From positions 11,434,199 through 11,498,198 of the forward strand of contig OZ036002.1 of the NCBI GenBank assembly GCA_964035015.1: 64,000 bases of DNA, in the 5' to 3' direction. This DNA is from Corallium rubrum. Lineage: Eukaryota; Cnidaria; Anthozoa; Scleralcyonacea; Coralliidae. The notes beneath the pieces are model-generated. The model did no database searches and was not told the origin of the DNA. It saw nothing but the letters and a program-made list of their open reading frames with translations. Below, piece by piece: positions 4,448-64,000 of the stretch. The translations under genes and the position numbers were made by a program. Each line of letters starts with the position of its first letter. Position 1 is the stretch's first letter.

Positions 4448-4687
4448 TTATTATATGGCCATAAATGTTGTGAACGTTCTGTGAAAACTCGATCTATCTT
4501 TCTTGCGAACTAAACGAAAATGGCAGACGTTTTCCCATTTTTAAAGTACTTTCCGTTGAGTTAGAATCCTGAACTTTCTGCCCCAAATAGTATTTTTCAA
4601 TTGCTTTTGTTTGACATATTGCTCAAGATCGTACGTTAAGGAGTTGAATAAAAAATCATCTGAAATTCTAATACTTGTGAGAAGTTT

Positions 4688-5075
4688 TACCCTCGAGGGT
4701 AAAACGCGGATATGAGGGTAAAACGCGGATATGAGGGTAAAACGCGGATACGAGGGTAAAACGCGGATATGAGGGTAAAACGCGGATAATGAGGGTAAAA
4801 CGCGGATATGAGGGTAAAAAGCTCATATCCGCGTTTTACCCTCATATCCGTCCGTCCGTCCGTCCGTCCGTCCGTCCGTCCGTCCGTCCGTCCGTCCGTC
4901 CGTCCGTATCCGCGTTTTACCCTCATAACCGCGTTTTACCCTCGAGGGTAAAACGCGGATTTGAGGGTAAAACGCGGATATGAGGGTAAAACGCGGATAT
5001 GAGGCTAAAACGCTCATATCCGCGTTTTACCCTCATATCCGTCCGTCCGTCCGTCCGTATCCGCGTTTTAACCTA
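4688..5075. repeat. Compound satellite: 18-bp unit in both orientations plus (TCCG)n
   Basis: The unit GAGGGTAAAACGCGGATA is repeated in direct array, then appears inverted after a (TCCG)n run at about 4847-4907. The pattern recurs at 4960-5060. Overlapping ORFs here are translations of the repeat. Confidence 0.9.
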
Positions 5076-5876
5076 ACCCCTCTACTGACTTTGGTAGTAA
5101 TAATGCCTGCCGCTGATCGGTAGACATTGCGTATACCGAAGATCATCGCCCACGAAATCCTAAGATCGAGTTTGTGAACGCATATAAACTCGGCCCAGAC
5201 CTCGTCAAGATTAGTGAGCTGCTCGCCTTACGGCTCGCAGCAATAACTCATAACTTACATGTAACTTGGCAGGAAAATGCAGCATTCGTCATCAAAACAA
5301 ACTTAGCTCCAAAGTATTGCCAAGAAAAGTATACAATTCCGTAAACAACAAACCAATAGTGATTTAGAATAACTGATAGGCTCCGATCAGTGGGCTAAAA
5401 TATATTGAAATCTCCATTTTACCCGCAAAATACACCACAATGCCCAATAAAATTATTATAATAGGGATTCGATTGTAGCTATTACAATAATTAGATGCAG
5501 AGTTAGCTCAGTTTATTAGCGATATACAATCCCGAGAGCATGAAGTTTGCACCTTTTCCGCTACTTGAGCGATTTCCTCCAGTGGTGCAAGAAGTCCTAC
5601 TTAGGAAATCATATCTTACTAAAGCAACAAAATGCAAGTTTATTCAAACTGACTCCTGTCCAGTCTTTCCGCTACTTTTCCAAAACATGTGAAATTAGTC
5701 TTTTTCAAAAAGCTAGGCGGTAAACCAGATTTCTGATTAGGATTTTTGTTGTGGTTAAGGTATCGAGAAGATGGCTAAAATCTTGAGACTCGCTGTAGCT
5801 TAGACGACAAATTTAGGAACATTTGACGACATATGTTGGAAATGAACTGAACGGGTCCCTTTGAGTTGTCTCTTAA

Positions 5877-6677
5877 AGCTACTGTCACTATGATGAAAAA
5901 ATCGTCAGTCTTTTTTTATCTTATCATAAAGTACATTTAAAATGAGGGTGAACGGCGTTTGTGGTTTGTCAATATCTCATCTCGTTCAGGAGATATTCAC
6001 GTTTTGGCAATATGCAAATTTATGGCTATGACGTCATTTTCTCCAAACGAGCGAAATGAAAATCGTATAATAAGGAATATCTCTGCAAATAAACAATAGA
6101 ATGTGCTTAAGCTTTGTATGCTTACAGTATCTAATAAAATACACTTCTCTGTGGAACTTTTGTGATTGCCATGGTAAGCGCATGCTCTCAGATTACTCTA
6201 AACCTCAAAAGGGAATTTTCATTTTTGCTTCATTGTTTAAAAATAGAAAGATTTAAACGTTTGAATTACAATGCCTACAAAATCCCTAATCGTCACATTT
6301 ATTCGCTGGAGTAAACGCTACTTGATTGCTGATAAATAAGAAAATTTAATTTTATCATTGGAGGGGGCCAGGAACCAGCAGTTTCTACGAAAACAACTAA
6401 AGTTCAGTGAAACGTATTTTATTTAATACTATAAGCATGCAAAATTTGAGCACTTTATATTGTTTATTTCTAGAGATATTCCTAATTTTACAATTTTCAT
6501 TTCGCTCGTTTGGAGAAAATGACGTCATCAGCCATATAATTTGCATATTTCAAAAACGTGAATATCTCTTGAACGAGATGAGTTATTTACAAACCACAAA
6601 CGCCGTTCCTCCTCATTTTTAATGTACTCTATGATTAGATCAAAAAAAGACTGACGATGTTTCATCTTAGTGACACT
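5877..6677. mobile_element. Long palindromic MITE with TTAA duplication
   Basis: Flanked by TTAA at 5873-5876 and 6678-6681. Inverted ends of about 210 bp contain GTCAGTCTTTTTTTATC-like, AACGGCGTTTGTGGTTTGT and GACGTCATTTTCTCCAAACG blocks. A TTAA target is typical of piggyBac-type transposition. No ORF is convincing. Confidence 0.75.
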
Positions 6678-7026
6678 TTAACCTCGACCTGTCAACCATC
6701 GCTAAGCTTCCCAGATCTGTACAGTAGATCCTGATTGGTCTAAAGCGCATGTGTTCATAATAGATCATTTGATTGATCGAGGTTAAAAGGAAGGACTCAA
6801 AAAGTGAGAAACATTAAACTACTATTAATAATGAATGTTTAAACAGGTGTTCTAAATCGGATAAAGCATTGATTAATAATAAAACATCAATGCTGATCAG
6901 ATTTACAGCATACTAATTAGGGCCCATTGGCTCAAATTGAGCATTTTGCTTGTTTAAATGATTTGTTTTTGGCTTTTCTACCACTGCTAAACAAAGTATT
7001 CATGATATAAACTCATCGTAGCTTAA

Positions 7027-7503
7027 AGTGTATATGAAACGAAAATTAAGTTGTCTTATTTGAAAGAACTCTTAAAATAATGGGGAATATCAATTTACAG
7101 CTTTTTCATATTTTACTTAGTTCTTGAGATATTTAGACTTATGTGATATTCAAATGAGATAACTTATGGTTCGTTTTTTTCTAATTAACATATTCGAAAA
7201 TTGTGAATAATTTTTAGATTATTGATCAAAATCACTCGTAACTTGTCTCTCATGTTTAGTTGCATGAACTGTAGCAATATGCAAAGTTTCAAGTGATTTT
7301 GTTCAATAATCTTAAAAATATGCACGATTTTCGAATATGTTAATTAGTGAAAAAACAAACCATATAAGTTCTCATTTGAATATCACATAAGTCTAAATAT
7401 CTCAAGAACTAAGTAAAATATGAAAAAGCTGTAAATTGATATTCCCCATTATTTTAAGAGTTCTTTCAAATAAGACAAACTTAATTTTAGATTCATATAC
7501 ACT
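7027..7503. mobile_element. Palindromic MITE with TTAA duplication
   Basis: TTAA at 7023-7026 and 7504-7507. Ends are AGTGTATATGAAACGAAA and the near-perfect inverse. Arms are about 175 bp and include a TCTTGAGATATTTAGACTTA block on both sides. Confidence 0.75.
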
Positions 7504-7511
7504 TTAAGTAA

Positions 7512-7610
7512 GATACAATATTCGCGTCCGGACTGTATGGGATTTACAATGGCACGCCTTCGGCTCGCCGTTGTAAATCCCATATAGTTCGGCCGCTCAT
7601 ATTGTATCTA
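7512..7610. repeat. Palindrome with apex GCCTTCGGCTCG
   Basis: Outer arms GATACAATATTCG / CATATTGTATC and inner arms ATGGGATTTACAATGG / CCGTTGTAAATCCCAT surround the apex. An asymmetric CGCGTCC/CGGCCGC pair separates the two stems. The same plan is seen at 40.7 kb with different arm sequence. Confidence 0.75.
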
Positions 7611-7942
7611 TTGCTTAAAAGATAAAAATTAAAAGAGAAGGCTTGTTAATAGCAAAGTACATCAAAGATGTACTTTAACACCTAGATGTTTTATATTAAG
7701 GACATCAAACCTTCGCTAAAGTGTAGGCTAAGAACCTTGGCTGACAAGCTATCTTGCAAGTTTTCGCAATACGACATGCTGTATATTCATGCTGTACGTA
7801 CAGACTAATCATAAGGAATGGTTCTTTAACGATGACAGGTTTTCTCGACCTTCCATGCAGGAATATGGGCTCGAAGAAAATTTTCGTGAAAATTCACCGT
7901 ATAGAAAAAATGACCTGGGTACGAGGTCACTGAAACACTCAC

Positions 7943-8221
7943 CTTTTCCGCACATGGGTCTAGTCAGAATGTACTTCTTCTGGTTTAAGGCAATCTCGGG
8001 TTTGTTACGATAGAAACGAATGATATTACCGTTGAACTGGATAAGAAGTTCAACGAGGCAGGTGACATCCTTTCGGTGGCCACAGTAGTCATTCAACATT
8101 CTCAATTTGAACGTCTTGTCGACACAGTCCTCAGAGAGAACAAATCTTCCTTTTCCCATGAAATCAAAGCGCTGCTTGTTGAAAGTGAAGTAGTGAGGGT
8201 CTCCATAAGTTACACATTCTC
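7943..8221 (-). CDS. VWD first-half exon, copy A
   Basis: A 279-bp, phase 1-1 exon between TTTTCAG and GTGAGT. It encodes the N-terminal half of a VWD domain: CVTYGDPHYFTFNKQRFDFM (the GDPHY/F-T-F-D signature), then GRFVLSEDCVDKTFKLRM, a CGHRKDVTC pair and a strand-rich stretch ending RPMCGKG. It splices in frame to the exon at 3712-4173. Its protein is identical to copy B at 8676-8954; the two DNAs differ at two synonymous positions that I could find. Both can be spliced in tandem or used alternatively without a frameshift. Tandem inclusion would give two half-domains and is structurally unlikely. Confidence 0.88.
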
Positions 8222-8349
8222 CTGAAAAATACATTCAGATAACGAAATTTGAAATGAGGTTATTCAACTACGGTTACGATTGTGTATAATCAACAACCGT
8301 TAGGAGGAGAGAAGGACACCTTTAATTTTATAGAATAGTGATATCTTAA

Positions 8350-8548
8350 AGTGTCACTAAGACGAAAAATCGTCAGTCTTTTTTTGACCTAATCATGAAG
8401 TACATTTAAAATGAGGAGGAACGGCGTTTGTGGTTTGTAAATAACCCATCTAGTTCAAGAGATATTCACGTTTTTGAGATATGCAAATTATTTGGCTGAT
8501 GACGTCATTTTCTCCAAACGAGCGAAATGAAAATCGTAAAATATAAGG
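8350..8548. mobile_element. One end of a TTAA-type MITE at the duplication junction
   Basis: Begins AGTGTCACTAAGACG right after TTAA (8346-8349) and matches the arm of the element at 5877-6677. In the second duplicate the same host site reads GATATCTTAATGT without the insert. Confidence 0.7.
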
Positions 8549-8675
8549 AATGGACCAGACGATGACAGGGCCATTCCCCTAGACCTTCCATGCAGAAAGG
8601 TCGACGAAATTGGCCCTGGCGTCCTTTCACCGTATAGGAAAAATGACCTGGGTACGAGGTTACTGAAACACTCAC

Positions 8676-8954
8676 CTTTTCCGCACATGGGTCTAGTCAG
8701 AATGTACTTCTTCTGGTTTAAGGCTATCTCGGGTTTGTTACGATAGAAACGAATGATATTACCGTTGAACTGGATAAGAAGTTCAACGAGGCAGGTGACA
8801 TCCTTTCTGTGGCCACAGTAGTCATTCAACATTCTCAATTTGAACGTCTTGTCGACACAGTCCTCAGAGAGAACAAATCTTCCTTTTCCCATGAAATCAA
8901 AGCGCTGCTTGTTGAAAGTGAAGTAGTGAGGGTCTCCATAAGTTACACATTCTC
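8676..8954 (-). CDS. VWD first-half exon, copy B
   Basis: Same length, phases and protein as copy A, with acceptor TCCTAG-type (TTTTTTAG) in place of TTTTCAG and the same GTGAGT donor. It lies upstream of copy A in the transcript. Conserved features are GDPHY, two disulphide Cys in SEDCVDK and DYCGHRKDVTC, and the terminal MCGKG. Near-zero divergence points to recent duplication or gene conversion. Mutually exclusive use would yield the same protein, so the copy is either redundant or a step toward divergence. An assembly artefact is unlikely because the copies differ in flanking sequence. Confidence 0.85.
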
Positions 8955-9084
8955 CTAAAAAATACATTCAGATAACGAAATTTGAAATGAGGTTATTACT
9001 ACGGTTACGATTGTGTATAATCAACAACCGTTAGGAGGAGAGAAGGACACCTTTAATTTTATAGAATAGTGATATCTTAATGTA

Positions 9085-11299: not shown

Positions 11300-12475
11300 T
11301 AGCCGCCAATTTTAAATTCTTTTATGTGCATATAAATTAGCCCTTATGACCTCGTTTTGAAGAAAAAATTCTTTGAAGAAACGTCGCTGTTGTCATAACG
11401 GCTGAAACACATTATCTGTTAACAGTCAAAATATTCATGACCACTTTCTGATGATGAGACTTGCATTTATTCAACTTTTTGAAGAAACAGTAGGGAGCCA
11501 CCTTAAGCGAACTATTTCCAGGCGTATTCAACAACGCTTCAAACACTCAGCACACTAAAATTACTAAGTAGTCTACTGCGTTTTGACTGAACTATCTAGT
11601 ACGTGATAAAACAAAAAATTATTTACATATGTTCTAACAAGCCCAAAATTATAACTAAACTTCAAATATACGACAATTTTCTTAATAATGTATGTTTCGT
11701 TTGAGAAGAATGAGTTGAGAATTTATGACGTCATAGACTCAACAAAAACAAAAGACATTGTTGTTGTCAACAAAAGGGTCATTGTTGTTATTGAGGCTAT
11801 GACGTCAAAAGCTTCCCCGATCGACTAATTCTTCTCCAGCTCAGCCACTTTAATGGCGGCGCTCCAAAATATAAACTTCACACTTTTCCTCAACGAATTT
11901 TGAAATGAAACTTTGCACGATTACTAACTACCATAACACCTTTAGGACTATGCAAAAACATTGCGAACAATATTTTCATCAGAGAACTAGTGTAATAATC
12001 TCACTCGTAAACTTGCTTCGCTCACTCGTGAAAGATATCGTATCCCAACACAGTCATGCTCAGTCGCGGATCAAGGGGAGGGCACTTTGGGCAAGTGCCA
12101 GGGGCCCCGCGCTTTCTGGGGCCCCGTCGATTTTTGGCGTAAGAAACTGTCTTGTAAATTAATTCTAAACTTTGAAATCATTGTTTGAAAACATCTGAAA
12201 AATAGAACCATAGTTCCAGAAATCTAGGTTGAGTACCATAGAAATCTAGGTTGTTGTACCATAGATAATGGAAAGGGAACTGGATAGGAAACTTACGAAA
12301 CTGGAAACGATGTTTGCACAACTTGCCATGGTAATTATACATTTATAAACAGCTAATGCACACAACGGGTGGTCCCACATGATCAGGATCAGCTATTGCC
12401 TGCAAAAATAGAAAATAGAATGTCGTTATATTTTCACCAACCTTGCATTGTTACCTCCTAGCTGTTTTAAGCTCG
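11300..12475. other. No gene recognised; one weak hairpin
   Basis: A GAGAAGAATGAGTTG / TTAATTCTTCTC imperfect inverted repeat with TGACGTCA-like cores lies at 11703-11836. A single hAT-like end (CAGTCGCGGATCAAGG) lies near 12061. The rest is unassigned intergenic or intronic sequence. Confidence 0.4.
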
Positions 12476-13332
12476 TTTGTTGTTGTTGTTGTTTGTTTGT
12501 TTGTTTGTTTGTTTGTTTGTTTGTTTGTTTGTTTGTTTGTTTGTTTGTTTGTTTGTTTGTTTGTTTGTTTGTTTGTTTGTTTGTTTGTTTGTTTGTTTGT
12601 TTGTTTGTTTGTTTGTTTGTTTGTTTGTTTGTTTGTTTGTTTGTTTGTTTGTTTGTTTGTTTGTTTGTTTGTTTGTTTGTTTGTTTGTTTGTTTGTTTGT
12701 TTGTTTGTTTGTTTGTTTGTTTGTTTGTTTGTTTGTTTGTTTGTTTGTTTGTTTGTTTGTTTGTTTGTTTGTTTGTTTGTTTGTTTGTTTGTTTGTTTGT
12801 TTGTTTGTTTGTTTGTTTGTTTGTTTGTTTGTTTGTTTGTTTGTTTGTTTGTTTGTTTGTTTGTTTGTTTGTTTGTTTGTTTGTTTGTTTGTTTGTTTGT
12901 TTGTTTGTTTGTTTGTTTGTTTGTTTGTTTGTTTGTTTGTTTGTTTGTTTGTTTGTTTGTTTGTTTGTTTGTTTGTTTGTTTGTTTGTTTGTTTGTTTGT
13001 TTGTTTGTTTGTTTGTTTGTTTGTTTGTTTGTTTGTTTGTTTGTTTGTTTGTTTGTTTGTTTGTTTGTTTGTTTGTTTGTTTGTTTGTTTGTTTGTTTGT
13101 TTGTTTGTTTGTTTGTTTGTTTGTTTGTTTGTTTGTTTGTTTGTTTGTTTGTTTGTTTGTTTGTTTGTTTGTTTGTTTGTTTGTTTGTTTGTTTGTTTGT
13201 TTGTTTGTTTGTTTGTTTGTTTGTTTGTTTGTTTGTTTGTTTGTTTGTTTGTTTGTTTGTTTGTTTGTTTGTTTGTTTGTTTGTTTGTTTGTTTGTTTGT
13301 TTGTTTGTTTGTTTGTCTGTCTGTCTGTTTGT
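12476..13332. repeat. Very long (TTTG)n microsatellite
   Basis: About 825 bp of nearly uninterrupted TTTG units (roughly 206) between a TTG-rich start and a short TCTG run at the right end. Long ORFs in all frames are translations of this repeat only. Confidence 0.98.
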
Positions 13333-13545
13333 CGCCAGGAAATTTGATCGTAGACCAAAGACCAAGTCATTAATTTTTTCTTGAATTTGATTGAGATTTG
13401 GATGACAAATCAATAGAAGAAATCGGAGTTTCGACTGTGCAAACAATCTGAGTCGGGATAAAACGTAGTTCATTTATAACAGGAGGCTGAAGCAGCCGTA
13501 GTAAACATAACAATTTCTGATTTCAGAAACTTTAATGTTTAGGTA

Positions 13546-17082: not shown

Positions 17083-17428
17083 TTAAAGTCTCTATTACTA
17101 ATAGACAACGCATCGTAAAAAATTGTTATCTGTAACTAGGTGTTCCCTCAAGAAACCAGTTGCCTTTGCAAGTAATTTAACCTAGTTTTGAGGACGACGG
17201 TCGCGCGACGGAGTTCAGAGAAGGCTAAATCATAGGCCCCGTTCACACTAAGATCGATCTCAGATCGATCTCTTTGGATCGATCTGAAACCGAGCTGAGA
17301 TCGATCTGAGACTGGTGAACGTGAGTGTTCACACTGCCGCGAACTTTTTAATAAAAAGCCTGAAGCTGAGTCTTGGAGAGTGGAGACTGGTAACGAAATT
17401 AAATATCGACTTCAAGATTTGCTTCAAG

Positions 17429-17968
17429 ATGGCGGATGCCGTTTTATCAGTGATAAACGAGTATCGAAAAAAAATAAAAACGCGACAACAGGCCTGGTTA
17501 ATAAACGCTCTAAAGCAAATTAACCTCATGCTAAAGAGAAAGAGAAAGAAGAATTTCGCACTTGTTTGCATGAATAATCTGTTTGCAAGTCAACCTGACA
17601 TTGAGCGAAGGTTTTGGGTTCAACCAACTAAGGATATCGGTTTATTTTTGGAAAGAACCGTTCAGCTTTGGACGGATCAAAGACTTTGGTTAGAGAACTT
17701 TCGAATGTCCAAGGGTACCTTCAATTTCGTGTGTCAGGAACTATCTCCTTATCTTTGCCGACGAGACACCAATTTTAGAAAGGCCATAAAACTGGAGAAG
17801 CGAGTGGCGATGTGCATTTGGCACTTAGCAACAGGAGAAGATCTTCGTTCTCTTGGATGGCGCTTTGGTGTCGGGAAAAGTACAGCCTGTCAGATTATCA
17901 ACGAGGTTTGCCAGGCAATTGTTGATATTCTGTTGCCACAAATAATGGAAGATTTGATCAATCCATAA
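17429..17968 (+). pseudogene. Harbinger transposase N-terminal part, DDE domain deleted
   Basis: A 179-residue ORF starting at the ATG in AAGATGGCGG. It has a basic region near residue 45 (KRKRKK), then the HARBI1-like N-terminal segment with FRMSKGTFNFVCQELSPYL, then a helix-turn-helix (LEKRVAMCIWHLATGEDLRS, followed by GWRFGVGKSTACQIINEVC). Family members continue for about 200 further residues through a DDE_Tnp_4 nuclease domain with D-D-E residues. Here the reading frame stops after IMEDLINP, and the next 200 bp before the convergent Myb gene hold no DDE sequence. Compare the complete domain at 53.8 kb. The ORF could bind DNA but cannot cut it. Confidence 0.85.
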
Positions 17969-18377: not shown

Positions 18378-18451
18378 CTCAATAGAATAAAAATAGCTAT
18401 CAGATAGTAATGATGCCTACATACATATTTAGTGGTTTAAAATAAACTTAC

Positions 18452-18844
18452 CTGAATCAGAATCAATGCTTGCAATAGTACTATCTTCTTCTGGTGCTGT
18501 ACTTGTGTCAACGCTTTTTTCCAGGCCAAGGGCTTCAGGTTTATCACCCAGAAAATAATCCATTTACCCAAAAAACTTTGGTTCTTTTCCCCTACCAGCT
18601 CCAGACCGGAGTCTTTGTGCTTCTTATATTCTGTTTTCAAATGCTTTATCTTTGTTCTACATTGCTTCCAGTCACGATCGAAGTCGCCGGATTCTTTCAT
18701 CATTCTGCTTATTTTTTTGTACACATCAGCATTCTTGTGGGTTCCACTAAGTTTTCTCTGTATCTCTTCGTCTCCCCACGCATAGATAAGAGCGAGACAC
18801 TCTTCTTCTGACCAAATCTCCCCCCTTTTTAGACATTTTATCAT
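18452..18844 (-). pseudogene. Harbinger accessory Myb/SANT-like protein, first exon, frameshifted
   Basis: Start chosen at MIKCLKRGEIWSEEE. A Myb/SANT-like (MADF/trihelix type) DNA-binding domain covers about residues 8-95. It has the three Trp-type helix landmarks: GEIWSEEECLALIYAWGD, KISRMMKESGDFDRDWKQCR and KIKHLKTEYKKHKD. After FLGKW the frame shifts by one base. The other frame continues with DYFLGDKPEALGLEKS, the linker expected after this domain, and runs to a CAG/GTAAGT donor at 18452. In PIF/Harbinger elements this protein helps carry the transposase to the nucleus and to the element ends. The frameshift suggests this copy is dead. Confidence 0.8.
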
Positions 18845-19144
18845 GCAATATACTATATAAACTGAAAATACCACACCACAAAAAAAATATGCCTTCGATT
18901 TTCGAATGGCGCAAAACAAAGCCTGGTAGCTAAGCGCAGAGGTGGAGATCGCTCCCAAGTACGCTTTGTGTTCACACTCTGCACCGATCTGACTCAGATC
19001 GATCCGAGACCACCTCTGGAAGTGGACTGCTTCAGATCGATCTGAGATCGATCTCAAATTTTATTCGACCGTTCACATTAAGCTCACTTCGTCTCAGATC
19101 GGTCTCGGATCGATCTCAAAGTGCAGTGTGAACGGGGCCATAAC

Positions 19145-35141: not shown

Positions 35142-35251
35142 TGTTTCATCTAAAAAAGAATCTTCAGGCAGATGACAATTTTCGAAAACAGGTGGTGCTT
35201 ATATCCTTCTTGTCGGGACGTGGGAGTGTGGGGGCGAAACAATACATGCAT

Positions 35252-36187
35252 TCATGGCTTTGTTGCGCTGTTTGCGCGGAATTTGTGTCGATGACGACAT
35301 TGACTGATAATTTCTGCTCTTTTGTTGAGTAAACAATTCTTGTTTTTATCTTTCAAAATATAAAATTTTTCTTCTAAACATAAATTACATCGTTTTGAAC
35401 CTCCCGTGTACGAAATAAAATGTTTTAAAATTTGCCAATTAATACTAAAATCCTTATTGTTTTCTTTCAATGCCCAAATATATTTCGAAAGTTCGGTGTC
35501 GTTTGCATGCTTTTTATGCTGAAATGATTTAGTGTGGTTGGCCAATCGCTCTTTGAATGTGGTTGAAGTCATGCCAATGTAATTCTTGATCGTGTTTGTG
35601 TTGTTTACTGTGACTGTTGCTTTGTATACTATGTCCCTAGTCATGCATTGTTTTCTAAGTGGACAATTCGTGTTTTTCTTACAATTGCAACTGCTAGTGT
35701 CCTTATCCTGTGGCATGTTATTCCTAGATATGTGTGCATTGTGTTTAGTGATTATTGACTTAACATTGTTCATGCAGCTGTAACTTACTTTGACTGTGTT
35801 TCTGTTAAAAATCTTATGGAGCTTGTGGTGTGGTGGGAAGTGCTTGTCAATTAGGTTTAGGAAATTACGTCCTATATTTGTGCTTACACTCTTGCTAAAA
35901 GGTGGGTTGAACCAAGTGATGTTGCGTTGCCTATTCCTGCGTGGTTGCTGTCCTGTGTGTTGAGTGTAGCTAAGGTCATGATCAAAGTTGCTGTGCCTAA
36001 GTGCGTTCTGATATATGGGTGCAGATTCCTGAAAAACTTGTTCATCTGACGAGAGAAGTGCAATGCGCTTGTTGATTGATGCAGGTAACTCTCTTGTGAT
36101 GCTTGGTGGGTGGTTAGAGTGCTTATTTATGTAAAGCGGATCGTCATTGGGCTTCCTATAGGGCCTATAATTTCCATTGTTAAGGTA
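35252..36187 (-). pseudogene. PLE reverse transcriptase C-terminus plus GIY-YIG endonuclease
   Basis: A continuous minus-strand frame of about 310 residues, open at the 5' side (36187) with no start. The first half is the linker after the PLE reverse transcriptase (ITWFNPPFSKSVSTNIGRNF, then HKIFNRNTVKVSYSCMNN). The second half is a GIY-YIG domain: CNCKKNTNCPLRKQC zinc-knuckle-like pair, IVYKATVTV, NYIGMTSTTFKERLANH, then RCNLCLEEKFYIL and LLNKRAEIISQCRH. YIG, the Arg of the ERLANH helix and the Glu/Asn region are present. Reverse transcriptase itself is missing. Stop at 35252. The C-terminal ~154 codons are repeated inverted at 36243-36707. Confidence 0.85.
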
Positions 36188-36242
36188 TTATAATTTCCAT
36201 TGTTAAGGTATTCCTAGATATGCACACATATCTAGGAATAAC

Positions 36243-36707
36243 ATGCCACAGGATAAGGACACTAGCAGTTGCAATTGTAAGAAAAACACGAATTGTCCAC
36301 TTAGAAAACAATGCATGACTAGGGACATAGTATACAAAGCAACAGTCACAGTAAACAACACAAACACGATCAAGAATTACATTGGCATGACTTCAACCAC
36401 ATTCAAAGAGCGATTGGCCAACCACACTAAATCTTTTCAGCATAAAAAGCATGCAAACGACACCGAACTTTCGAAATATATTTGGGCATTGAAAGAAAAC
36501 AATAAGGATTTTAGTATTAATTGGCAAATTTTAAAACATTCTATTTCGTACACGGGAGGTTCAAAACGATGTAATTTATGTTTAGAAGAAAAATTTTATA
36601 TTTTGAAAGATAAAAACAAGAATTGTTTACTCAACAAAAGAGCAGAAATTATCAGTCAATGTCGTCATCGACACAAATTCCGCGCAAACAGCGCAACAAA
36701 GCCATGA
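36243..36707 (+). pseudogene. GIY-YIG domain ORF of the inverted PLE copy
   Basis: A 154-residue ORF nearly identical to the C-terminus of 35252-36187; one clear difference is HFISYTGG versus HSISYTGG. It contains the CNCKKN...CPLRKQC pair, IKNYIGMTSTTFKERLANH and the RCNLC and CRHRH motifs. The start at MPQDKD is the first Met after the palindrome and lies inside what is normally a longer protein, so this is a truncated copy. Confidence 0.8.
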
Positions 36708-36789
36708 ATGCATGTATTGTTTCGCCCCCACACTCCCACGTCCCGACAAGAAGGATATAAGCACCACCTGTTTTCGAAAATTGTCATCT

Positions 36790-36835
36790 GCCTGAAGATT
36801 CTTTTTTAGATGAAACAGCCTGTAGCAGACTTTTG
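36790..36835 (+). ncRNA. Hammerhead-like motif at PLE end, degraded helix II
   Basis: UCUGC, CUGAAGA, UUCU-loop-AGAU, GAAA, ACAGCCUGU, A, GCAGA. Helix I (UCUGC/GCAGA, 5 bp) and helix III form. Helix II is only 3 bp with a U-U pair at its base. The mirrored copy at the other end of this PLE is cut by the hAT target site. Confidence 0.4.
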
Positions 36836-53822: not shown

Positions 53823-55131
53823 TTATTCATTAAGTGACTCTTTTTCCTGCCAAAACTTATCTGCCAGTAGATTGCGGATTCTGTTTGCTCCATTATCATT
53901 ATCCCATGCTTTTGTAGGATTCATCATGTGGAGAATGTCTCGGATCTCTGAACTTTCTCTCCTTTGGTTTGTGTTTGGATCAATTGTGATATCTAGAGTT
54001 CTTGGCATAACATCCCCTCTAGAGATACAGATGTTGTGCAATACCATACATGCCAATGTAACTGTTTTAACTTCATCAGGAAAACTGTCACATTTGCGCA
54101 TGAGTAATCGCCAACGTCCCTTGAGTTGCCCATAGGCACCTTCGGTAACCATCCTAGCCCGATTTAGCCGGTAATTAAAGTATCTTTGCTTTGGGTTTAG
54201 TTTTGCATTAGTGTAAGGCTTCATCAACCAGGGTTTAAGTTGAAAAGCAGAGTCTGCAAGTATAAGAGGAGGGACTTCAACACCATTTAGATTTCTAACA
54301 ATGTTTGGGATGTACCCCCCTCCTTGTATTTGTTCCCATAAATCTGTTGACTGGAAAATCACAGAATCGTGGGAATTTCCTGGGAAACCACAACTCCCCC
54401 ATGTAAATCTGTATTTTGAATCAACCATTGCCATTAATACAATTGAATAAAAGTTCTTGAAGTTATGATATTCCTTGCAAGATTCTAATCCTCCTGGTGG
54501 GCATTTGATTGGTATATGGCAACCATCAATGGCACCCCAACAACAAGGAAATTGCCACGTTTGTTCCATTTCACTTATCTTTTGTAAAAAATCAGTTTCT
54601 GATTTTGGCATATATGTTGTCACCTCAGAAACCCAAAGCACTTCCACAATAGCTTTGGAGACTTCACAAACGATGCAGCAAACAGTGGAAACTCCTAATC
54701 CTGTCATTTCAGCAATTGTATAGTGATAATCACCTCGTCCACACCTGTAAAGGAATACAGCTAACCTCTGTTCAGGGGAGACTGGCAACTCAGTAACAAT
54801 TTCCTTTTCAAGCTTGTGTCGAATTTTTTCAGTCTAATAAATATATAAAGGTTGCACGAGACATTCTGAAGGTTTTTTTAAATCTAACGTCATCGTAGTT
54901 GTTCCACACAAGGTCCCACCAACCACTGTTTCGCACTAATCGACGACAAGATCGAACAACTGTCTTGTTCCCCTTCAAGTTCAGGCATAAAAGCAACATA
55001 AGTATGCATGTTTTGAAAATCATTCTTCTTGCCACCGCGAACGTCAAGATAGTTTGCAATGTCTTTCTTTGCTTTTTGTTCTTTGCAATCAATTTCCTTA
55101 TCAACGTAATCCTGTTTCTTCCAGGTGCCAT
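53823..55131 (-). pseudogene. Harbinger transposase with intact DDE domain, one frameshift
   Basis: The start is the ATG at 55131 (MAPGRNRITLIRKLIAKNKK). The N-terminus contains WWDLVWNNYDDVRFKKTFRM and SRATFIYLLD. There the frame hits GAC-TGA; a one-base shift continues with EKIRHKLEKEIV and PVSPEQRLAVFLYR. Next come an HTH (TIAEMTGLGVSTVCCIVCEV) and a DDE_Tnp_4 domain with CCWGAIDGCHIPIKCP (first Asp), GFPGNSHDSVIFQ, ILADSAFQLKPWLM (second Asp) and RARMVTEGAYGQLKGRWR (Glu). All three catalytic acids are present. Stop at 53823. Homologous to HARBI1 and to the DDE-less copy at 17.4 kb. Confidence 0.88.
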
Positions 55132-58260: not shown

Positions 58261-58439
58261 ATATGGCAAAACAAGAAAACTAGAAAAATTAGGGAGAAAC
58301 TGCATGGATTCCATCATGGTGTCTTGATGTCCGCCAAAAGAAAGGCTTGCGCTTGGTAATGTAACCATACAAAATGTCGGAATTTTTTAAACGAATTCGT
58401 TTCTAAACAGAAGCTGTCAGAAATGAACTAATTAATTCA

Positions 58440-58855
58440 CTATGTGTAATCACTGTGCAAAAAATGTGTAATCACTAAGCAAAAAAATGTTTAATCACTA
58501 TGCAAAAATGTTTAATCACTATGCGAAAAATTCTTTAATCACTGTGCAAAAAATGTTTAACTACTGCGCAAAAAAAGTTTAATTACCGCGCAAAAATGTT
58601 TAATTACTGTGCAAAAATGTTTAATCACTGTGCAAAAAAATGTTTAATCACTGTTCAAAAAATGTTTAATCACTGTGCAAAAAATGTTTAATTACTGTGC
58701 AAAAAAATGTTTAATCACGGTTCAAAAAATGTTTAATCACTGTTCAAAAACTGTTTAATCACTGTGCCAAAACTGTTTAATCACTGTGCCAAAAATGTTT
58801 AATCACTATGCAAAAAATGTTTAATCACTGTGCGAAAAATTTTTAATCACTACTT
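58440..58855. repeat. ~21-bp minisatellite
   Basis: About 20 imperfect copies of ATGTTTAATCACTGTGCAAA with variable A runs. Confidence 0.95.
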
Positions 58856-58975
58856 TACTTTATTTACTATAGTTCGGGTTTGTGTGGAGGGCTCGCGTCT
58901 ATCGAAAAAAATGCCAAAGATAAGCAAAACATATGAGAATGTCATGCACGCAGTCCACTGAAGACTATGACTACG

Positions 58976-59101: not shown

Positions 59102-60680
59102 CATGCGTAGTCCCGAATGCAAGGCAGTTGAAACCTGGGCAAAAGGAAATAAACAACAAGTCCTACAGCAGGCTACTAAAGATCACAATAAAAAAACATG
59201 CTTGCCTACGTCTGTTTATATCTGATAAAAAAAATTCTTGTTGTTTACATATTAACTTTAGCTTTGATTTTCTTGGTTTAGGGGGTGTTTACATGAGGCC
59301 AGTCCTCGGGCCGAGCTAGCCTGCGATCAGGCTCTTGTGGAGGGAGAGAGGGAGGGGAATGCAGACAAGAGAAAAATAGAGCTTGGACGGATGCTAAGAA
59401 TTTTAGATATCAGCGTTAAATCATGACGCAAAATTCTAATTGGTCGGTTTGCCTTATAACGTCAATCATAAATGCAAGGGGGATGTTGTGTACTGAAGTC
59501 TCACTAAAGGCAAAAGGTCGGATTTTGAAGTGAACTCGAAAATGCGATAAAGTATACAATCAAACCAGCATCTAGACTTGGAGTGAAACGAAAAAAAAAA
59601 CAGTGTACTTACTGCAATAGATTCAAGAAGGAAGATAGAATCGTCAAGAATACCAGTATGCAAACCATATTAAGAGTAACAATGCCAAAATATTCCATGC
59701 ACCTAAGATGGAAGGCTTTCGATCGATCAGTTTCTCGCAGTCTACAAAAAAGAAATGCTATTTGATTTGATTGTCTGACATGTATTTATGAGTTGATTAG
59801 TTTTATCTCAAATGGGGGCGGATGTTCAAAATTGTATAGAGTCCGTGCACTTTCTTCCATCTTGCAAGAGCCTGGAAGCAGGCTGTACTCACGTTGGACT
59901 GACTTTAGGTCGGTTGTATTTTACTGTAGATCGTTCTCATGAGTCCGGCCTGAGATTCTGTTCACGCCAGGCTAATCTCAGGTCGCCTGCTAGACAGAAC
60001 TAAAATTCTGAGGCTGGCAGTAGCTTATCCTAGACATACAGGGTCGGACGTCAGGGTCGGGTGCGCACACCTGTGACGTCAGCCTGTGCACACAAAGAAT
60101 GCTGACGTGATAAAAATTATGCGGTGTATATCATTAACGTATCGCGGGCTACTTTTCGACAGCTATTTCGGAACGCACTCGGGTTTCCTTCGGTCATCAT
60201 CGTATTATTTCAAGATGGGTGAAGATCGATAAATAAAAACAGTATTGGAACAGTTTGGCTTGCTTTTTTTCCCTTTCTTTTTTAGTGAATATGAGGAAAA
60301 AGATGGATTTGAGACAGCGTTCAGGTTTTTCTGATTACCAAGCCATTTTAAATTTATATCTTTCTTTTTGGATTAATGATCACAGTGACAATGTGCATTA
60401 GACACTTTTATAAGTTTATGTACACTGAATTACTTAAACCGATGTTTTATAAGTTTATGTACACTGAATTATTTAGAGTGATGTTTTATAAGTCTACGTG
60501 AGAATTTTCTACCATAACTAAACACTTAATAAGTATACTGTTCAGGTTTTTACGTTGTTTGTTTATGTAAATGGTTACACGAGAAAGAAACGTCATGTGG
60601 TTATTTTCAATGGGTACCTGAACCAGCAAAGTCGTCCCGCGTTGAAGAGCCGTTCATTTTTGTGAGATGAGAAGATGAGC
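59102..60680. other. No gene; one Harbinger-MITE end
   Basis: GGGGGTGTTTACATGAGGCC at 59280 matches the end of the MITE at 44456. A 60-bp direct repeat (GTTTTATAAGTTTATGTACA) occurs at 60395-60480. No coding region is supported. Confidence 0.45.
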
Positions 60681-60683
60681 ACA

Positions 60684-60815
60684 TGCTCATAAGTGCTCTG
60701 AGCACTTGCTCATTGGCTCATAAGTGCTCTGAGCACTTGCTCATTGGCTCATAAGTGCTATGAGCACTTGCTCATTGGCTCATAAGTGCTCTGAGCACTT
60801 GCTCATTGGCTCAAA
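60684..60815. repeat. 35-bp tandem repeat of an element terminus
   Basis: Four copies of GCTCATAAGTGCTCTGAGCA followed by CTTGCTCATTG. Each unit holds the AGTGCTCTGAGCACTT palindrome. It marks the left terminus of the rearranged ORF element. Confidence 0.85.
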
Positions 60816-60983
60816 AGGGAGATAAAGGGGGTCAGGCGAATGCGAAAATGTATACATTGTTAGAGCAAAATATTGTTGCTAGGATACTGCTTTGCTTGGA
60901 TGCATGCATAAAGTAAAACACAGATTAACGTTTTAAACAATTTAGTCCTCGTAGTATAACAATTTTACACAAATATACAGTTC

Positions 60984-61193
60984 TTAAACATATTGTCCAG
61001 CTTTTACAGTATTTTCCAGCTTTGATCGCTTGACTTTGTAAACTGTTCCGTCTTCCGCTAGTAGGAGTTTACGTTTTTGTCCCTTGTGTTCCACAGACTT
61101 GACATCCAAAACTTTGACTACACTTCGTTTCTTTTCTGCAGGCAATAGAGGAATTTTTTCGTAATTGAGTACACCAATTAAAATATTAACCAT
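60984..61193 (-). CDS. ORF2, left palindrome arm
   Basis: A 69-residue basic protein on the minus strand. It starts at the ATG directly after the ORF1 stop (TAAATG). Motifs: MVNILIGVLNYEKIPLLPAE, then KRSVVKVLDVKSVEHKGQKR, then LLAEDGTVYKVKRSKLENTV. Three strand-like Val/Leu patches alternate with Lys-rich turns, as in a small beta-barrel fold, but I do not recognise the family. It differs from the right-arm copy by Asn for Asp at residue 10. A polyadenylation signal follows the stop. Confidence 0.7.
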   Translation of the reverse strand: MVNILIGVLNYEKIPLLPAEKKRSVVKVLDVKSVEHKGQKRKLLLAEDGTVYKVKRSKLENTVKAGQYV

Positions 61194-61523
61194 TTATTTT
61201 TTGTCTTTCTTCATTTCCCCAGAGTTAGAACGTTTTCGTTTACTGGTCTGTCCATGTTTTAATTTGGCGGCTCGTAAGTAAACATTAAATTTTCTTTCCA
61301 TCTCTTCTTGCCGCTTTAATAAATTTTCCAGACTTTCCTCCATACTGAATTCCTTTGGTTCTTCACTCTGTCGAGGTACACATATTCCTATCTTACTCCA
61401 CTTTAGCCACTTCTTGCGTTCTTCCGTGTCCATGCCATGTACTTGATCGAGATGATTAGCTAGTCTAGCAAGATTTGTACTACCGCAACCAAAAACAGGA
61501 CAGTTCCTACGCGTACGACCCAT
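61194..61523 (-). CDS. ORF1, C2H2 zinc-finger protein, left palindrome arm
   Basis: 109 residues starting MGRTRRNCPVFGCGS. The zinc finger spans CPVFGC...HLDQVH (C-x4-C-x10-H-x4-H) at residues 8-29. It is followed by ERKKWLKWSKIGICV, an acidic helix EESLENLLKRQEEMERKFNV that could form a coiled coil, and a Lys/Arg-rich tail ending KKDKK. Protein identical to the right-arm copy. The open frame extends upstream without a Met. Function is unknown; nucleic-acid binding is inferred from the finger and basic tail. Confidence 0.75.
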   Translation of the reverse strand: MGRTRRNCPVFGCGSTNLARLANHLDQVHGMDTEERKKWLKWSKIGICVPRQSEEPKEFSMEESLENLLKRQEEMERKFNVYLRAAKLKHGQTSKRKRSNSGEMKKDKK

Positions 61524-61749
61524 TTTTAGATGTTTGCTCAATGAGTTCCTAATAATAATTGACTCATTTTTTACGTGTGTTAGATATTTTATTTGGCCCG
61601 TTTACACCCAGGTTAGGACGTCTAGTCAGCAAACGGGCCATCGGACCGTATAGTGCCTTATAGGGCCAAAACGGGTCTGATCGGGCCCATATGAGCAAAT
61701 GAGCAAGTGCTCATGAGCAGTTATGAGCAAATGAGCAAGTGCTCATGAG

Positions 61750-61906
61750 CAAATGAGCACTTGCTCATTTGCTCATAACTGCTCATGAGCACTTGCTCAT
61801 TTGCTCATATGGGCCCGATCAGGCCCGTTTTGGCCCTATAAGGCACTATACGGTCCGATGGCCCGTTTGCTGACTAGACGTCCTAACCTGGGTGTAAACG
61901 GGTCAA
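61750..61906. repeat. Left inverted terminal repeat of the ORF1-ORF3 element (fused to its mirror)
   Basis: TGAGCACTTGCTCATTTGC units, then CCGATCAGGCCCGTTTTGGC, CACTATACGGTCCGATGGCC and GACGTCCTAACCTGGG. The same order occurs inverted at 63885-64000, and in mirror image left of 61750. Confidence 0.85.
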
Positions 61907-61930
61907 ATAAAATATCTAACACACGTAAAA

Positions 61931-61960
61931 ATGAGTCAATTATTATTAGGAACTCATTGA
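61931..61960 (+). promoter_or_regulatory. Possible 9-codon upstream ORF before ORF1
   Basis: ATGAGTCAATTATTATTAGG continues to a TGA 15 bases before the ORF1 ATG, in both palindrome arms. It could dampen ORF1 translation. Only sequence support. Confidence 0.35.
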
Positions 61961-61974
61961 GCAAACATCTAAAA

Positions 61975-62304
61975 ATGGGTCGTACGCGTAGGAACTGTCC
62001 TGTTTTTGGTTGCGGTAGTACAAATCTTGCTAGACTAGCTAATCATCTCGATCAAGTACATGGCATGGACACGGAAGAACGCAAGAAGTGGCTAAAGTGG
62101 AGTAAGATAGGAATATGTGTACCTCGACAGAGTGAAGAACCAAAGGAATTCAGTATGGAGGAAAGTCTGGAAAATTTATTAAAGCGGCAAGAAGAGATGG
62201 AAAGAAAATTTAATGTTTACTTACGAGCAGCCAAATTAAAACATGGACAGACCAGTAAACGAAAACGTTCTAACTCTGGGGAAATGAAGAAAGACAAAAA
62301 ATAA
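61975..62304 (+). CDS. ORF1, C2H2 zinc-finger protein, right palindrome arm
   Basis: Protein-identical to the left-arm copy. The start at ATG 61975 (AAAAATGGG) is chosen because it is the first Met and the longer open frame upstream crosses the terminal repeat. Zinc finger, coiled-coil-like acidic helix and basic tail as described for 61194-61523. The stop codon is immediately followed by the ORF2 start, an arrangement that needs reinitiation or a polycistronic transcript in a eukaryote. Confidence 0.75.
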   Translation: MGRTRRNCPVFGCGSTNLARLANHLDQVHGMDTEERKKWLKWSKIGICVPRQSEEPKEFSMEESLENLLKRQEEMERKFNVYLRAAKLKHGQTSKRKRSNSGEMKKDKK

Positions 62305-62514
62305 ATGGTTAATATTTTAATTGGTGTACTCGATTACGAAAAAATTCCTCTATTGCCTGCAGAAAAGAAACGAAGTGTAGTCAAAGTTTTGGATGTCAAG
62401 TCTGTGGAACACAAGGGACAAAAACGTAAACTCCTACTAGCGGAAGACGGAACAGTTTACAAAGTCAAGCGATCAAAGCTGGAAAATACTGTAAAAGCTG
62501 GACAATATGTTTAA
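62305..62514 (+). CDS. ORF2, right palindrome arm
   Basis: 69 residues, starting in TAAATGG with no spacer after ORF1. Sequence as the left copy, with Asp at residue 10. An AATAAA at 62552-62557 suggests a Pol II transcript ending after ORF2, so ORF1 and ORF2 would share one mRNA. No known family recognised. Confidence 0.72.
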   Translation: MVNILIGVLDYEKIPLLPAEKKRSVVKVLDVKSVEHKGQKRKLLLAEDGTVYKVKRSKLENTVKAGQYV

Positions 62515-62703
62515 GAACTGTATATTTGTGTAAAATTGTTATACTACGAGGAATAAATTGTTTAAAACGTTAATTTGTGTGTTACTTTATGCATGCATCC
62601 AAGCAAAGCAGTATCCTAGCAACAATATTTTGCTCTAACAATGTATACATTTTCGCATTCGCCTGACCCCCTTTATCTCCGTTTTGAAGAAAGACAAAAA
62701 TAA

Positions 62704-62913
62704 ATGGTTAACATTTTAATTGGTGTACTCGATTACGAAAAAATTCCTCTATTGCCTGCAGAAAAGAAACGAAGTGTAGTCAAAGTTTTGGATGTCAAGT
62801 CTGTGGAACACAAGGGACAAAAACGTAAACTCCTACTAGCGGAAGACGGAACAGTTTACAAAGTCAAGCGATCAAAGCTGGAAAAGACTGTAAAAGCTGG
62901 ACAATATGTTTAA
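62704..62913 (+). CDS. ORF2, extra tandem copy
   Basis: Third copy of ORF2, preceded by the last 15 or so bases of ORF1 with one A fewer in the A run, so the breakpoint lies in that run. The protein differs at one residue (LEKTV for LENTV). Its own AATAAA lies at 62951-62956. It could be translated from its own ATG if transcribed from the ORF1 promoter, but the duplication may be inert. Confidence 0.65.
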   Translation: MVNILIGVLDYEKIPLLPAEKKRSVVKVLDVKSVEHKGQKRKLLLAEDGTVYKVKRSKLEKTVKAGQYV

Positions 62914-63114
62914 GTACTGTATATTTGTGTAAAATTGTTATACTACGAGGAATAAATTGTTTAAAACGTTAATCTGTGTGTTAATTTATGCATGCATCCA
63001 AGCAAAGCAGTATCCTAGCAACAACATTTTGCTCTAAAAATGTATATATTTTCGCATTCGCCTAACCCCCTTTATCTCCCTTTTGATAAATTTTTATTTC
63101 ACACAAGCATTACA

Positions 63115-63672
63115 TCACTGATCATCATCACTATCTGAAAAACGTCCTTGATCTTCTAAAAGCTGTTTCAAAAGAAACTTTCTTTTGTCAACCGCTGCAG
63201 ATAAAGCTTCATCAGGATCAAACGAGTCTTCGTTCACAAGTGTCTGCTTCGTTTCCATGATCTTTCCATGCACAGGATCCTTTTTAAGTGCTTTCATCCA
63301 ACGTAAATTATCCACGTAAACGTCAGCGAATTCTTTCTGAAGTTCAGGGAGAATTTTTTCAAAGGCTTTCTGCTTAGCTACACTTTCTTCTTGCCCTTCC
63401 ATTTGCAACGTTTTTAATAGTTCATCATATTCTGGCCGAACCGTCACTTTTGCATCGTCAATCATGGTTGCCCAAGGATCAATCTCTTCCTTTATTTCAC
63501 CATCATCTTCGGAACTCTGACTGTTTTCATCATACGACGAGCTTGACATTTCTTCATCAGATTCCATATCAGGCTCCTCAGTGTCAGTGTATTCCCTTGA
63601 CGGACAATCGTTTTCGTGCCGTCTTAGATTATAGCCTTTATTAAACATTTTCCCACAATATTGGCAGTTCAT
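63115..63672 (-). CDS. ORF3, C2HC zinc-finger acidic protein
   Basis: 185 residues from the ATG at 63672. It begins MNCQYCGKMFNKGYNLRRHE-NDC, a single C-x2-C-x12-H-x3-C finger at residues 3-23. A very acidic Ser/Glu/Asp region follows (residues 30-65, ESDEEMSSSSYDENSQSSED). Then come DPWATMIDDAKVTVRPEYDE, a helical Lys/Glu-rich stretch with VDNLRWMKALKKDPVHGKIM, and an acidic tail DSDDDQ. Convergent with ORF2. AATAAA on its strand at 63098-63093. No family recognised. The combination of one finger and an acidic domain suggests a DNA-binding activator, by inference only. Confidence 0.75.
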   Translation of the reverse strand: MNCQYCGKMFNKGYNLRRHENDCPSREYTDTEEPDMESDEEMSSSSYDENSQSSEDDGEIKEEIDPWATMIDDAKVTVRPEYDELLKTLQMEGQEESVAKQKAFEKILPELQKEFADVYVDNLRWMKALKKDPVHGKIMETKQTLVNEDSFDPDEALSAAVDKRKFLLKQLLEDQGRFSDSDDDQ

Positions 63673-63751
63673 TCTTTGAGCTCAGACAACCTGTAAATGA
63701 CGAGTATGGACGGAAAGTCCTTATTAATAAACACCACTTGATTTTTGGACT

Positions 63752-63818
63752 AGGAATTTCAGATAGTGATGATGATCAGTGATGTAATGCTTATGTGAAA
63801 TAAAAATTTATCAAAATT
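63752..63818 (+). repeat. Inverted scrap of the ORF3 3' end
   Basis: AGATAGTGATGATGATCAGT and GTAATGCTTATGTGAAATAA reproduce the last codons and 3' flank of ORF3 (63080-63140) in the opposite sense. Another trace of fold-back rearrangement. Confidence 0.8.
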
Positions 63819-63884
63819 GTATTGTGTCTTGTTTCATTTTTTAAGCAATAATAAGTCCTGGAGCATGACAAGCCTGGGCTTGCC

Positions 63885-64000
63885 CAGGTTAGGACGTCTA
63901 GTCAGCAAACGGGCCATCGGGCCGTATAGTGCCTCATCGGGCCTGATCGGGCCATATGAGCAAGTGCTCAGAGCAGTTATGAGCCAATGAGCAAGTGCTC
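63885..64000. repeat. Right inverted terminal repeat, truncated by the window
   Basis: Inverse of 61752-61895: CCAGGTTAGGACGTCTAGTC, GGGCCGTATAGTGCCTCATC, then TGAGCAAGTGCTCAGAGCAG. Confidence 0.85.

What the first reader, a model, noticed from the sequence alone, without database searches (positions are those of the whole stretch)
60684..64000. Unclassified ambisense element with head-to-head fused terminal repeats
Seen: ORF1 (C2H2 finger) and ORF2 rightward, ORF3 (C2HC finger, acidic) leftward, enclosed by inverted terminal repeats built from GAGCACTTGCTCAT units. At 61750 two such termini are fused into a 1.9-kb palindrome with near-identical arms. A deletion derivative lacking ORF3 makes up the left side. 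Known: fused termini arise when linear genomes with hairpin ends replicate (rolling hairpin, concatemers), and from aberrant transposition. Inferred: this may be an integrated small DNA virus, a virus satellite or a new transposon group whose enzyme is supplied in trans. I recognise none of the three proteins.
Basis: partly seen in the sequence, partly recalled or inferred. Interest (0 to 1): 0.88.

Follow-up and report, generated by a model that had tools for sequence, protein, structure and literature searches.

The report
Polinton-dependent foldback transposon with own genes
The window ends in one copy of a jumping element that has the ends and insertion mark of the virus-like transposons called Polintons but not their polymerase or integrase, and instead carries small zinc-finger genes of its own, so it looks like a gene-bearing parasite of those elements.

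Summary
The sequence features are real; their reading changes. The three ORFs, the GAGCACTTGCTCAT arrays and the 1.9-kb palindrome lie inside ONE insertion, window 60019 to 64943 (943 bp past the window end), 4,925 bp, flanked by a 6-bp target duplication, GCTGGC. Its ends are 5'-AGTAGCTTA..TAAGCTACT-3', about 650 bp outside the left array, so 61750 is not a fusion of termini but the centre of an internal ORF1-ORF2 palindrome. The same 140-nt centre occurs on another contig, which argues against an assembly artefact.

Of 24 distinct insertions picked by their end motif, 18 have exact 6-bp duplications (control 0 of 552). Two 16-kb elements with such ends and exact 6-bp duplications encode a B-family DNA polymerase and an rve integrase with chromodomain, i.e. 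Polintons. The window element lacks these enzymes; it carries ORF1, ORF2 and ORF3. ORF3 has 150 scored matching stretches in the genome and relatives in other assemblies.

Best reading: a non-autonomous, foldback-type Polinton, replicated and integrated in trans, with private genes. Whether those genes make it a true satellite is open.

The parts
60013..60018 (.). left copy of the 6-bp target site duplication GCTGGC (right copy at window-equivalent 64944-64949, outside the window)
   Evidence: L036
60019..60667 (+). left terminus AGTAGCTTATCCTAGACATACAG and outer domain of the terminal inverted repeat; outer-domain sequence shared with other short elements and in part with a 16-kb Polinton (L051 1645-1858, 98.6% over 214 bp)
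60668..60816 (+). tandem array of 31-bp units (TGAGCACTTGCTCATTGGCTCATAAGTGCTC), a subterminal domain of the TIR
60984..61193 (-). ORF2, copy in palindrome arm A (69 aa)
61194..61523 (-). ORF1, copy in palindrome arm A (109 aa, C2H2-type finger by its spacing)
61635..61687 (-). GGCCC array at 10-bp steps, arm A (one unit reads GACCC)
61690..61808 (.). centre of the ORF1-ORF2 palindrome: GAGCA/TGCTC repeats with a 6-nt spacer GAGCAA (61747-61752); identical centre at C20 (L032)
61812..61864 (+). GGCCC array, six units at steps of 10,10,10,10,8 bp (up to one mismatch each), arm B
61975..62304 (+). ORF1, arm B1
62305..62514 (+). ORF2, arm B1
62704..62913 (+). ORF2, second copy B2; shares K61 with the copies in L033 and L034
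63081..63140 (+). 60-bp inner end of the TIR, left copy (overlaps the 3' end of ORF3)
63115..63672 (-). ORF3 (185 aa; zinc finger, acidic linker, helical domain), the core gene of the ORF3-type elements
63673..63756 (.). 84-bp part of the core next to the ORF3 start, present in all 15 ORF3-bearing loci mapped
63757..64000 (-). right TIR, inner part: 60-bp end, spacer, GGCCC array (63911-63953), first 31-bp unit; continues outside the window to the right terminus at 64943

Best explanation
The feature is one insertion of a non-autonomous Polinton (Maverick) of foldback build. Shown: long terminal inverted repeats; 5'-AG..CT-3' ends and 6-bp target duplications of the same kind as those of two polymerase- and integrase-bearing Polintons of the same genome; no polymerase or integrase ORF of its own; own small genes (ORF1 and ORF2 divergent from the centre of a palindrome, ORF3 in the core). 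Inferred: a Polinton's protein-primed polymerase copies it as linear DNA from its ends and the Polinton integrase inserts it. Inferred: the 31-bp repeats and the 10-bp-phased GGCCC array are binding sites, most likely for the element's own finger proteins ORF1/ORF3, which bring helper proteins to the ends or favour the small element over the helper. The palindrome most likely arose by fold-back copying at the inverted repeats of the array (6-nt loop) and was then inherited as part of the element; recombination with an ORF3-type element gave the mosaic seen here.
For: Termini and TSD: 18 of 24 distinct insertions with both ends read (picked by the end motif) have exact 6-bp TSDs, window copy included; none matches over 7 bp; control with ends of different insertions 0 of 552 (in one search, where eight insertions were present twice, 8 of 992). 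Terminus pattern: 142 matches in the genome against 0 for the reversed pattern. Helper: two elements of 15,876 and 16,763 bp with termini at 3 mismatches from the pattern, TSDs TTCATT and GTCCTA, rve 3e-13 and 1.9e-13 plus Chromo 1.6e-11 and 4.8e-12, DNA_pol_B_2 1.9e-21 and 4.8e-24. Shared outer TIR stretches at 98.6% (214 bp) and 98.7% (79 bp), and 40 of 40 bp of the GAGCA array. TIRs up to 1,730 bp at 99.3% and 1,369 bp at 99.85% within a copy. ORFs: 156, 149 and 81 related proteins for ORF1, ORF3 and ORF2; ORF3 open in 23 of 31 full-length copies; distinct changes 43 nonsynonymous to 21 synonymous, pN/pS 0.47. Phased array: no further chain of four or more in the window, 0 in 60 simulated windows. 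Published: rve integrases typically make 6-bp TSDs; PolB, rve integrase and TIRs define the class (PMC12220804, passages).
Against: No mobilisation was observed; trans-mobilisation is inferred from shared ends. ORF1-3 have no relatives of known function or fold beyond a zinc finger, so their role is guesswork. ORF3's within-genome constraint is moderate, counted against one reference copy without correction for transition bias. Six of 24 insertions lack an exact TSD: two have 5 of 6 matches, two are displaced by ACT, one has none, one has reverse-complementary flanks. Only about 11 kb of each 16-kb Polinton was read, so an ORF1-3 gene in the unread part is not excluded. In the outer 350 bp an end is closest to its own partner in only 15 of 24 insertions, and the two ends of the window copy are only 64% alike there, so that copy is a recombinant.
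Confidence: 0.85

Rival explanations
1. Plain deletion derivatives: the small elements are decayed Polintons whose ORFs are left-over Polinton accessory genes, without any role of their own.
For: Same kind of ends and shared outer domains with Polintons. The Polinton pieces also carry zinc-finger ORFs near their ends (GRF and C2H2 fingers). pN/pS of 0.47 shows only moderate constraint.
Against: No tblastn match (E up to 1) of ORF1-3 in the eight Polinton pieces L049-L054, L057, L058, about 11 kb of each 16-kb element; blastp against nine of their ORFs gave only chance-level hits, best E 0.49, ORF3's finger against a C2H2 finger. By reading two capped lists by eye, 1 of 150 listed ORF3 stretches lies within 20 kb of a listed polymerase place (C23, about 17 kb apart). 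ORF3 relatives of 42-81% identity keep a similar small size, though the search admitted only 0.55-1.75 times its length.
Confidence: 0.3
2. Integrated small DNA virus with hairpin ends (parvovirus- or bidnavirus-like); the palindrome is a replication dimer junction.
For: Palindrome with a 6-nt loop-like centre and strong folding of that strand (-77.4 against a shuffle mean of -11.2 kcal/mol); ambisense genes.
Against: True ends are elsewhere and carry Polinton-type termini and TSDs. No Rep or capsid family among the ORFs. No relative in viral contigs in three protein and two DNA scans.
Confidence: 0.03
3. A foldback element of an ordinary cut-and-paste superfamily (P/Galileo, Mutator, CACTA) mobilised by that transposase.
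For: Long TIRs with internal tandem repeats as in Galileo and Tetris (PMC3573991 and PMC4079207, passages); subterminal arrays as in CACTA (PMC2613891, passages).
Against: TSD is 6 bp (18 of 24) rather than 7 bp (Galileo), 8-10 bp (Tetris) or 3 bp (the CACTA element of PMC2613891). The same kind of ends is found on elements with polymerase and rve integrase.
Confidence: 0.05
4. Assembly artefact: the palindrome is a folded read or misjoined repeats.
For: Palindromes are a known assembly hazard; another palindrome in the window has arms reported as 100% complementary. L041 has reverse-complementary flanks.
Against: Arms differ at 7 of 924 positions with 3 gap columns. The same 140-nt centre occurs on another contig (C20). 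A TSD pair brackets the whole unit.
Confidence: 0.03

Closest known systems
Polinton/Maverick elements (polintoviruses)
   Same: 6-bp TSDs, long TIRs, the same kind of termini and partly shared outer TIR with two polymerase- and integrase-bearing elements of the same genome
   Different: the 35 shorter elements paired here measure 0.9-9.5 kb against about 16 kb; the window copy has no polymerase or integrase; ORF1-3 were not seen in the Polinton pieces read; TIRs filled with 31-bp and 10-bp-phased arrays and, in some copies, whole genes
Foldback elements (FB, Galileo, Tetris)
   Same: long TIRs with internal tandem repeats of variable number, chimeric copies, enzyme lost (PMC3573991, PMC4079207; passages)
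   Different: 6-bp TSD; helper is a Polinton; the middle keeps an open gene with relatives elsewhere, whereas Tetris lacks conserved ORFs
Satellites and virophages of large DNA viruses (general notion, recalled)
   Same: small element with some genes of its own depending on a larger virus-like element
   Different: no capsid gene seen, no particle or helper inhibition shown; dependence inferred from shared ends only
CACTA/Spm subterminal arrays with the binding protein TNPA
   Same: repeated subterminal motifs and an element-encoded DNA-binding protein as working model (PMC2613891, passages)
   Different: not CACTA ends, different TSD; an analogy only

Membership tests
Polinton/Maverick | 6-bp target site duplication | tested here: met
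   window copy GCTGGC/GCTGGC; 18 of 24 distinct insertions exact, control 0 of 552
Polinton/Maverick | terminal inverted repeats of hundreds of bp or more | tested here: met
   up to 1,730 bp within copies; window copy 677 columns at 98.5%
Polinton/Maverick | 5'-AG..CT-3' terminal bases (defining role recalled) | tested here: met
   AGTAG..CTACT at the window copy and at the 24 insertions, which were picked by this motif; the TSDs beside it confirm the position
Polinton/Maverick | protein-primed B-family DNA polymerase | tested here: not met
   no such ORF in the window copy (no ATG ORF of 60 aa or more in the part beyond the window); DNA_pol_B_2 present in both 16-kb elements
Polinton/Maverick | rve integrase (with chromodomain) | tested here: not met
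   absent in the window copy; present in both 16-kb elements; hence called non-autonomous, not a full Polinton
Polinton/Maverick | capsid and packaging genes | not tested
   no Pfam capsid match among the ORFs of the window copy; not looked for specifically in the 16-kb elements
Foldback elements | long TIRs with internal tandem repeats | tested here: met
   31-bp and 10-bp arrays inside the TIR
Foldback elements of the Mutator or P superfamily | TSD of 7-10 bp | tested here: not met
   exact TSDs are 6 bp; none of 24 matches over 7 bp
CACTA | CACTA termini | tested here: not met
   termini are AGTAG..
Parvoviruses/bidnaviruses | Rep/NS1 or polymerase gene within an ITR-bounded genome | tested here: not met
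   no such ORF or Pfam family; the array ends are not the ends of the element

The most novel reading that the evidence does not exclude
An animal genome houses gene-bearing satellites of Polintons. They are small linear elements that use the polymerase and integrase of an endogenous virus-like element and keep private zinc-finger proteins that bind phased arrays at their ends, to capture the helper's replication and insertion machinery or to compete with it. They form new, larger elements by copying genes into both terminal repeats.
Probability: 0.4. Interest if true: 0.85.

Novelty: new variant of a known kind. Interest (0 to 1): 0.7.

Why it matters
Polintons sit between transposons and viruses. 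A family of small, many-copy, gene-carrying elements with Polinton ends suggests they have parasites of their own, as phages and giant viruses do. It gives a clear set to study: the same kind of ends with and without the enzymes, three orphan protein families with relatives in many assemblies, and terminal repeats that take up whole genes. It also explains some orphan 'hypothetical proteins' of such genomes as mobile-element genes. None of six phrases for non-autonomous Polintons or Mavericks, mini-Polintons or Polinton satellites occurs in the open-access library searched; subscription papers and repeat databases were not searched.
Full report
1. Check of the observation. The palindrome is real: self-alignment over 1,878 columns is 98.8% identical, and the arms differ at 7 of 924 aligned positions with 3 gap columns, more than I would expect of a folded read of one molecule (inference). 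The exact unit GAGCAAGTGCTC/GAGCACTTGCTC occurs only in this region of the 64-kb window. Left of the palindrome lies an array of 31-bp units (60668-60816). Besides arm B and the right TIR, no chain of four or more such units at exact 10-bp steps exists in the window (arm A falls short because one unit reads GACCC), and none appeared in 60 simulated windows. Leader peptides of two database relatives (P0037, P0058) can be encoded by GGCC chains of five and four units at 10-bp steps, reached in 0 of 2,000 shuffles each; with the stricter motifs GGCCC and GGGCC the chains are only two long (shuffle fractions 0.0045-0.024), and a third relative (P0066) shows no chain.

2. The genome. After many unanswered tries, the whole assembly (474 Mb, 312 contigs, unnamed) could be searched; the window is C18:11434199-11498198. 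The query region gave 625 matches. Mapping the modules on 20 fetched loci shows that ORF3 sits in the core of a long-TIR element. From the outside inwards the TIR holds an outer domain, the 31-bp array, the GGCCC array, a spacer and a 60-bp inner end. The TIRs reach 1,730 bp (99.3% identical) and 1,369 bp (99.85%) within single copies. In the outer 350 bp an end is closest to its own partner in 15 of 24 insertions and to another insertion in 9, the window copy among them.

3. Ends and target duplications. The ends are AGTAGCTTA..TAAGCTACT, with variants. Among the fetched loci, 24 distinct insertions have both ends, picked by this motif; eight further rows were the same insertions fetched twice and were dropped. 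18 of 24 have an exact 6-bp TSD, none a 7-bp match, and pairs of ends from different insertions give 0 of 552 (in one search, with the repeats left in, 8 of 992). Of the other six, L031 and L039 have 5 of 6 matches, L045 and L048 have the TSD displaced by the three bases ACT, L030 has none, and L041 has flanks that are reverse complements of each other. Loci where only one end, or neither, was seen were not counted (for example L003/L032, L005, L011, L028, L033-L035, L037, L042, L047). The window copy starts at 60019, ends at window-equivalent 64943 and has the TSD GCTGGC.

4. The helper. A search for the 23-bp terminus with up to three mismatches gave 142 places (69 forward, 73 reverse) and none for the reversed pattern. 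The two long ones have exact 6-bp TSDs, TTCATT and GTCCTA. Both encode an rve integrase with a C-terminal chromodomain and DNA_pol_B_2, the latter in two open stretches in each. They share outer TIR stretches with the window element (214 bp at 98.6% in one, 79 bp at 98.7% in the other), and one holds 40 bp of the GAGCA array without a mismatch. Together these are marks of Polintons: PMC12220804 (passages) names PolB, rve integrase and TIRs as defining and says that rve integrases typically make 6-bp TSDs; PMC8547959 (passages) gives 5-6 bp for mavirus and Maverick/Polinton elements. The genome holds many more polymerase stretches: 199 matches from the 76 of 1,079 candidates that were scored.

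5. The private genes. ORF1, ORF3 and ORF2 gave 156, 149 and 81 related proteins in the large protein set. In the alignments used here ORF3 relatives fall to 42% identity and ORF1 relatives to 46%. Neither Pfam nor structure comparison places them beyond a sub-threshold C2H2 finger in ORF3. In the own genome ORF3 has 150 matching stretches from 150 scored of 217 candidates; by my count of the list 20 of them have stops inside, and some are pieces of one copy. Of 31 full-length copies among the fetched loci, window copy included, 23 keep the frame. Against the window copy the 17 gap-free copies (itself included) show 43 distinct nonsynonymous and 21 synonymous changes, pN/pS 0.47; a simple binomial test against the site proportions gives p 0.005, with no correction for transition bias. 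ORF1-3 gave no tblastn match (E up to 1) in the eight Polinton pieces. L055 and L056 belong to the 9.5-kb C8 element and do hold ORF3 and an ORF1-like stretch (37% over 46 aa). Reading the two capped lists side by side by eye, one of the 150 ORF3 stretches (C23) lies within 20 kb of a listed polymerase place.

6. The palindrome. In L029 the ORF1-ORF2 unit stands in both TIR arms around an ORF3 core, likewise in L030; in the 9.5-kb C8 element ORF3 stands in both arms. Genes thus move into the TIRs. In the window, arms A and B1 share a one-base insertion at the end of ORF1 (their ORF1 ends KKDKK) that the copies in L029, L030, L033, L034 and L035 lack (theirs end NKWLTF or NKWLIF); B2 has five As at this place where B1 has six. 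Arm A shares N10 of ORF2 with L031 and L032, and B2 shares K61 with L033 and L034. The element is therefore a mosaic of a palindromic ORF1-ORF2 module and an ORF3-type element with an ORF2 unit of another lineage. The 140-nt palindrome centre, with its 6-nt spacer GAGCAA, is identical on C20 (L032), so it was inherited rather than made by assembly (inference). Fold-back copying at short inverted repeats makes palindromes in yeast, for example at an 11-bp imperfect repeat with a 6-bp spacer, mainly in cells lacking Sae2 or Mre11 nuclease (PMC10622511, passages), and inverted duplications in people, where the spacers are 766-70,466 bp (PMC3907307, passages). Protein-primed linear replication, in which single strands are displaced, would offer the chance for it; this step is inference.

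7. Mechanism, likelihoods and limits. Non-autonomous Polinton with helper in trans: about 0.85. Private genes acting on the helper (satellite): about 0.4. The arrays as binding sites for ORF1/ORF3: plausible, untested.

8. Comparison. By what it works like, it is a foldback-type dependent element such as Galileo or Tetris, with Polintons as helper. By membership it carries the cis features of Polintons but not their enzymes, so I file it as a non-autonomous Polinton-derived family with private genes: a new variant of a known kind.

Noticed in passing
window 35142-36817: Another palindrome: 598-nt arms reported as 100% complementary, 480 nt apart, each carrying the same ORF stretch (no Pfam match; resembles the GIY-YIG end of Penelope-like retroelements by recall).
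   Followed up: no
window 53823-54833: Harbinger-type DDE transposase ORF (DDE_Tnp_4, 1.5e-30); a Myb/SANT-like ORF lies at 18437-19060 and a weak HTH_Tnp_4-like piece at 17288-17968.
   Followed up: partly
window 3704-8967: Exons with von Willebrand D and C8 domains on the minus strand (3704-4258 and 7809-8234); an almost identical D-domain stretch is repeated at 8488-8967.
   Followed up: partly
window 12412-13473: About 1 kb of a short tandem repeat that is open in several frames (CLFV / QTNK repeats).
   Followed up: no
window 58439-58877: Minisatellite of about 22 bp (TGTTTAATCACTGTGCAAAAAA type) left of the element.
   Followed up: no
window 63675-63761: Plus-strand frame FELRQPVNDEYGRKVLINKHHLIFGLG beside ORF3 weakly resembles NMN adenylyltransferase (PDB 5z9r, E 0.088); part of the core of all 15 ORF3-bearing loci mapped.
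   Followed up: partly
L041 (C247:14200-19200): An ORF3-type element whose two host flanks are reverse complements of each other, so it sits at the centre of a larger palindrome or of an assembly fold.
   Followed up: no
L045 and L048, right end: The target duplication is displaced from the right end by an extra ACT in both insertions.
   Followed up: no
L055, L056, L059 (C8:15998267-16007746): A 9.5-kb relative with ORF3 in both TIR arms, an ORF1-like stretch (37% over 46 aa) and a Harbinger DDE fragment in its middle.
   Followed up: partly
G000, ORF3 list: Many ORF3 stretches match only from residue 21 on, so a second ORF3 subfamily may have a different N-terminal end; some database relatives begin MASYQCDRCLKRF.
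   Followed up: no
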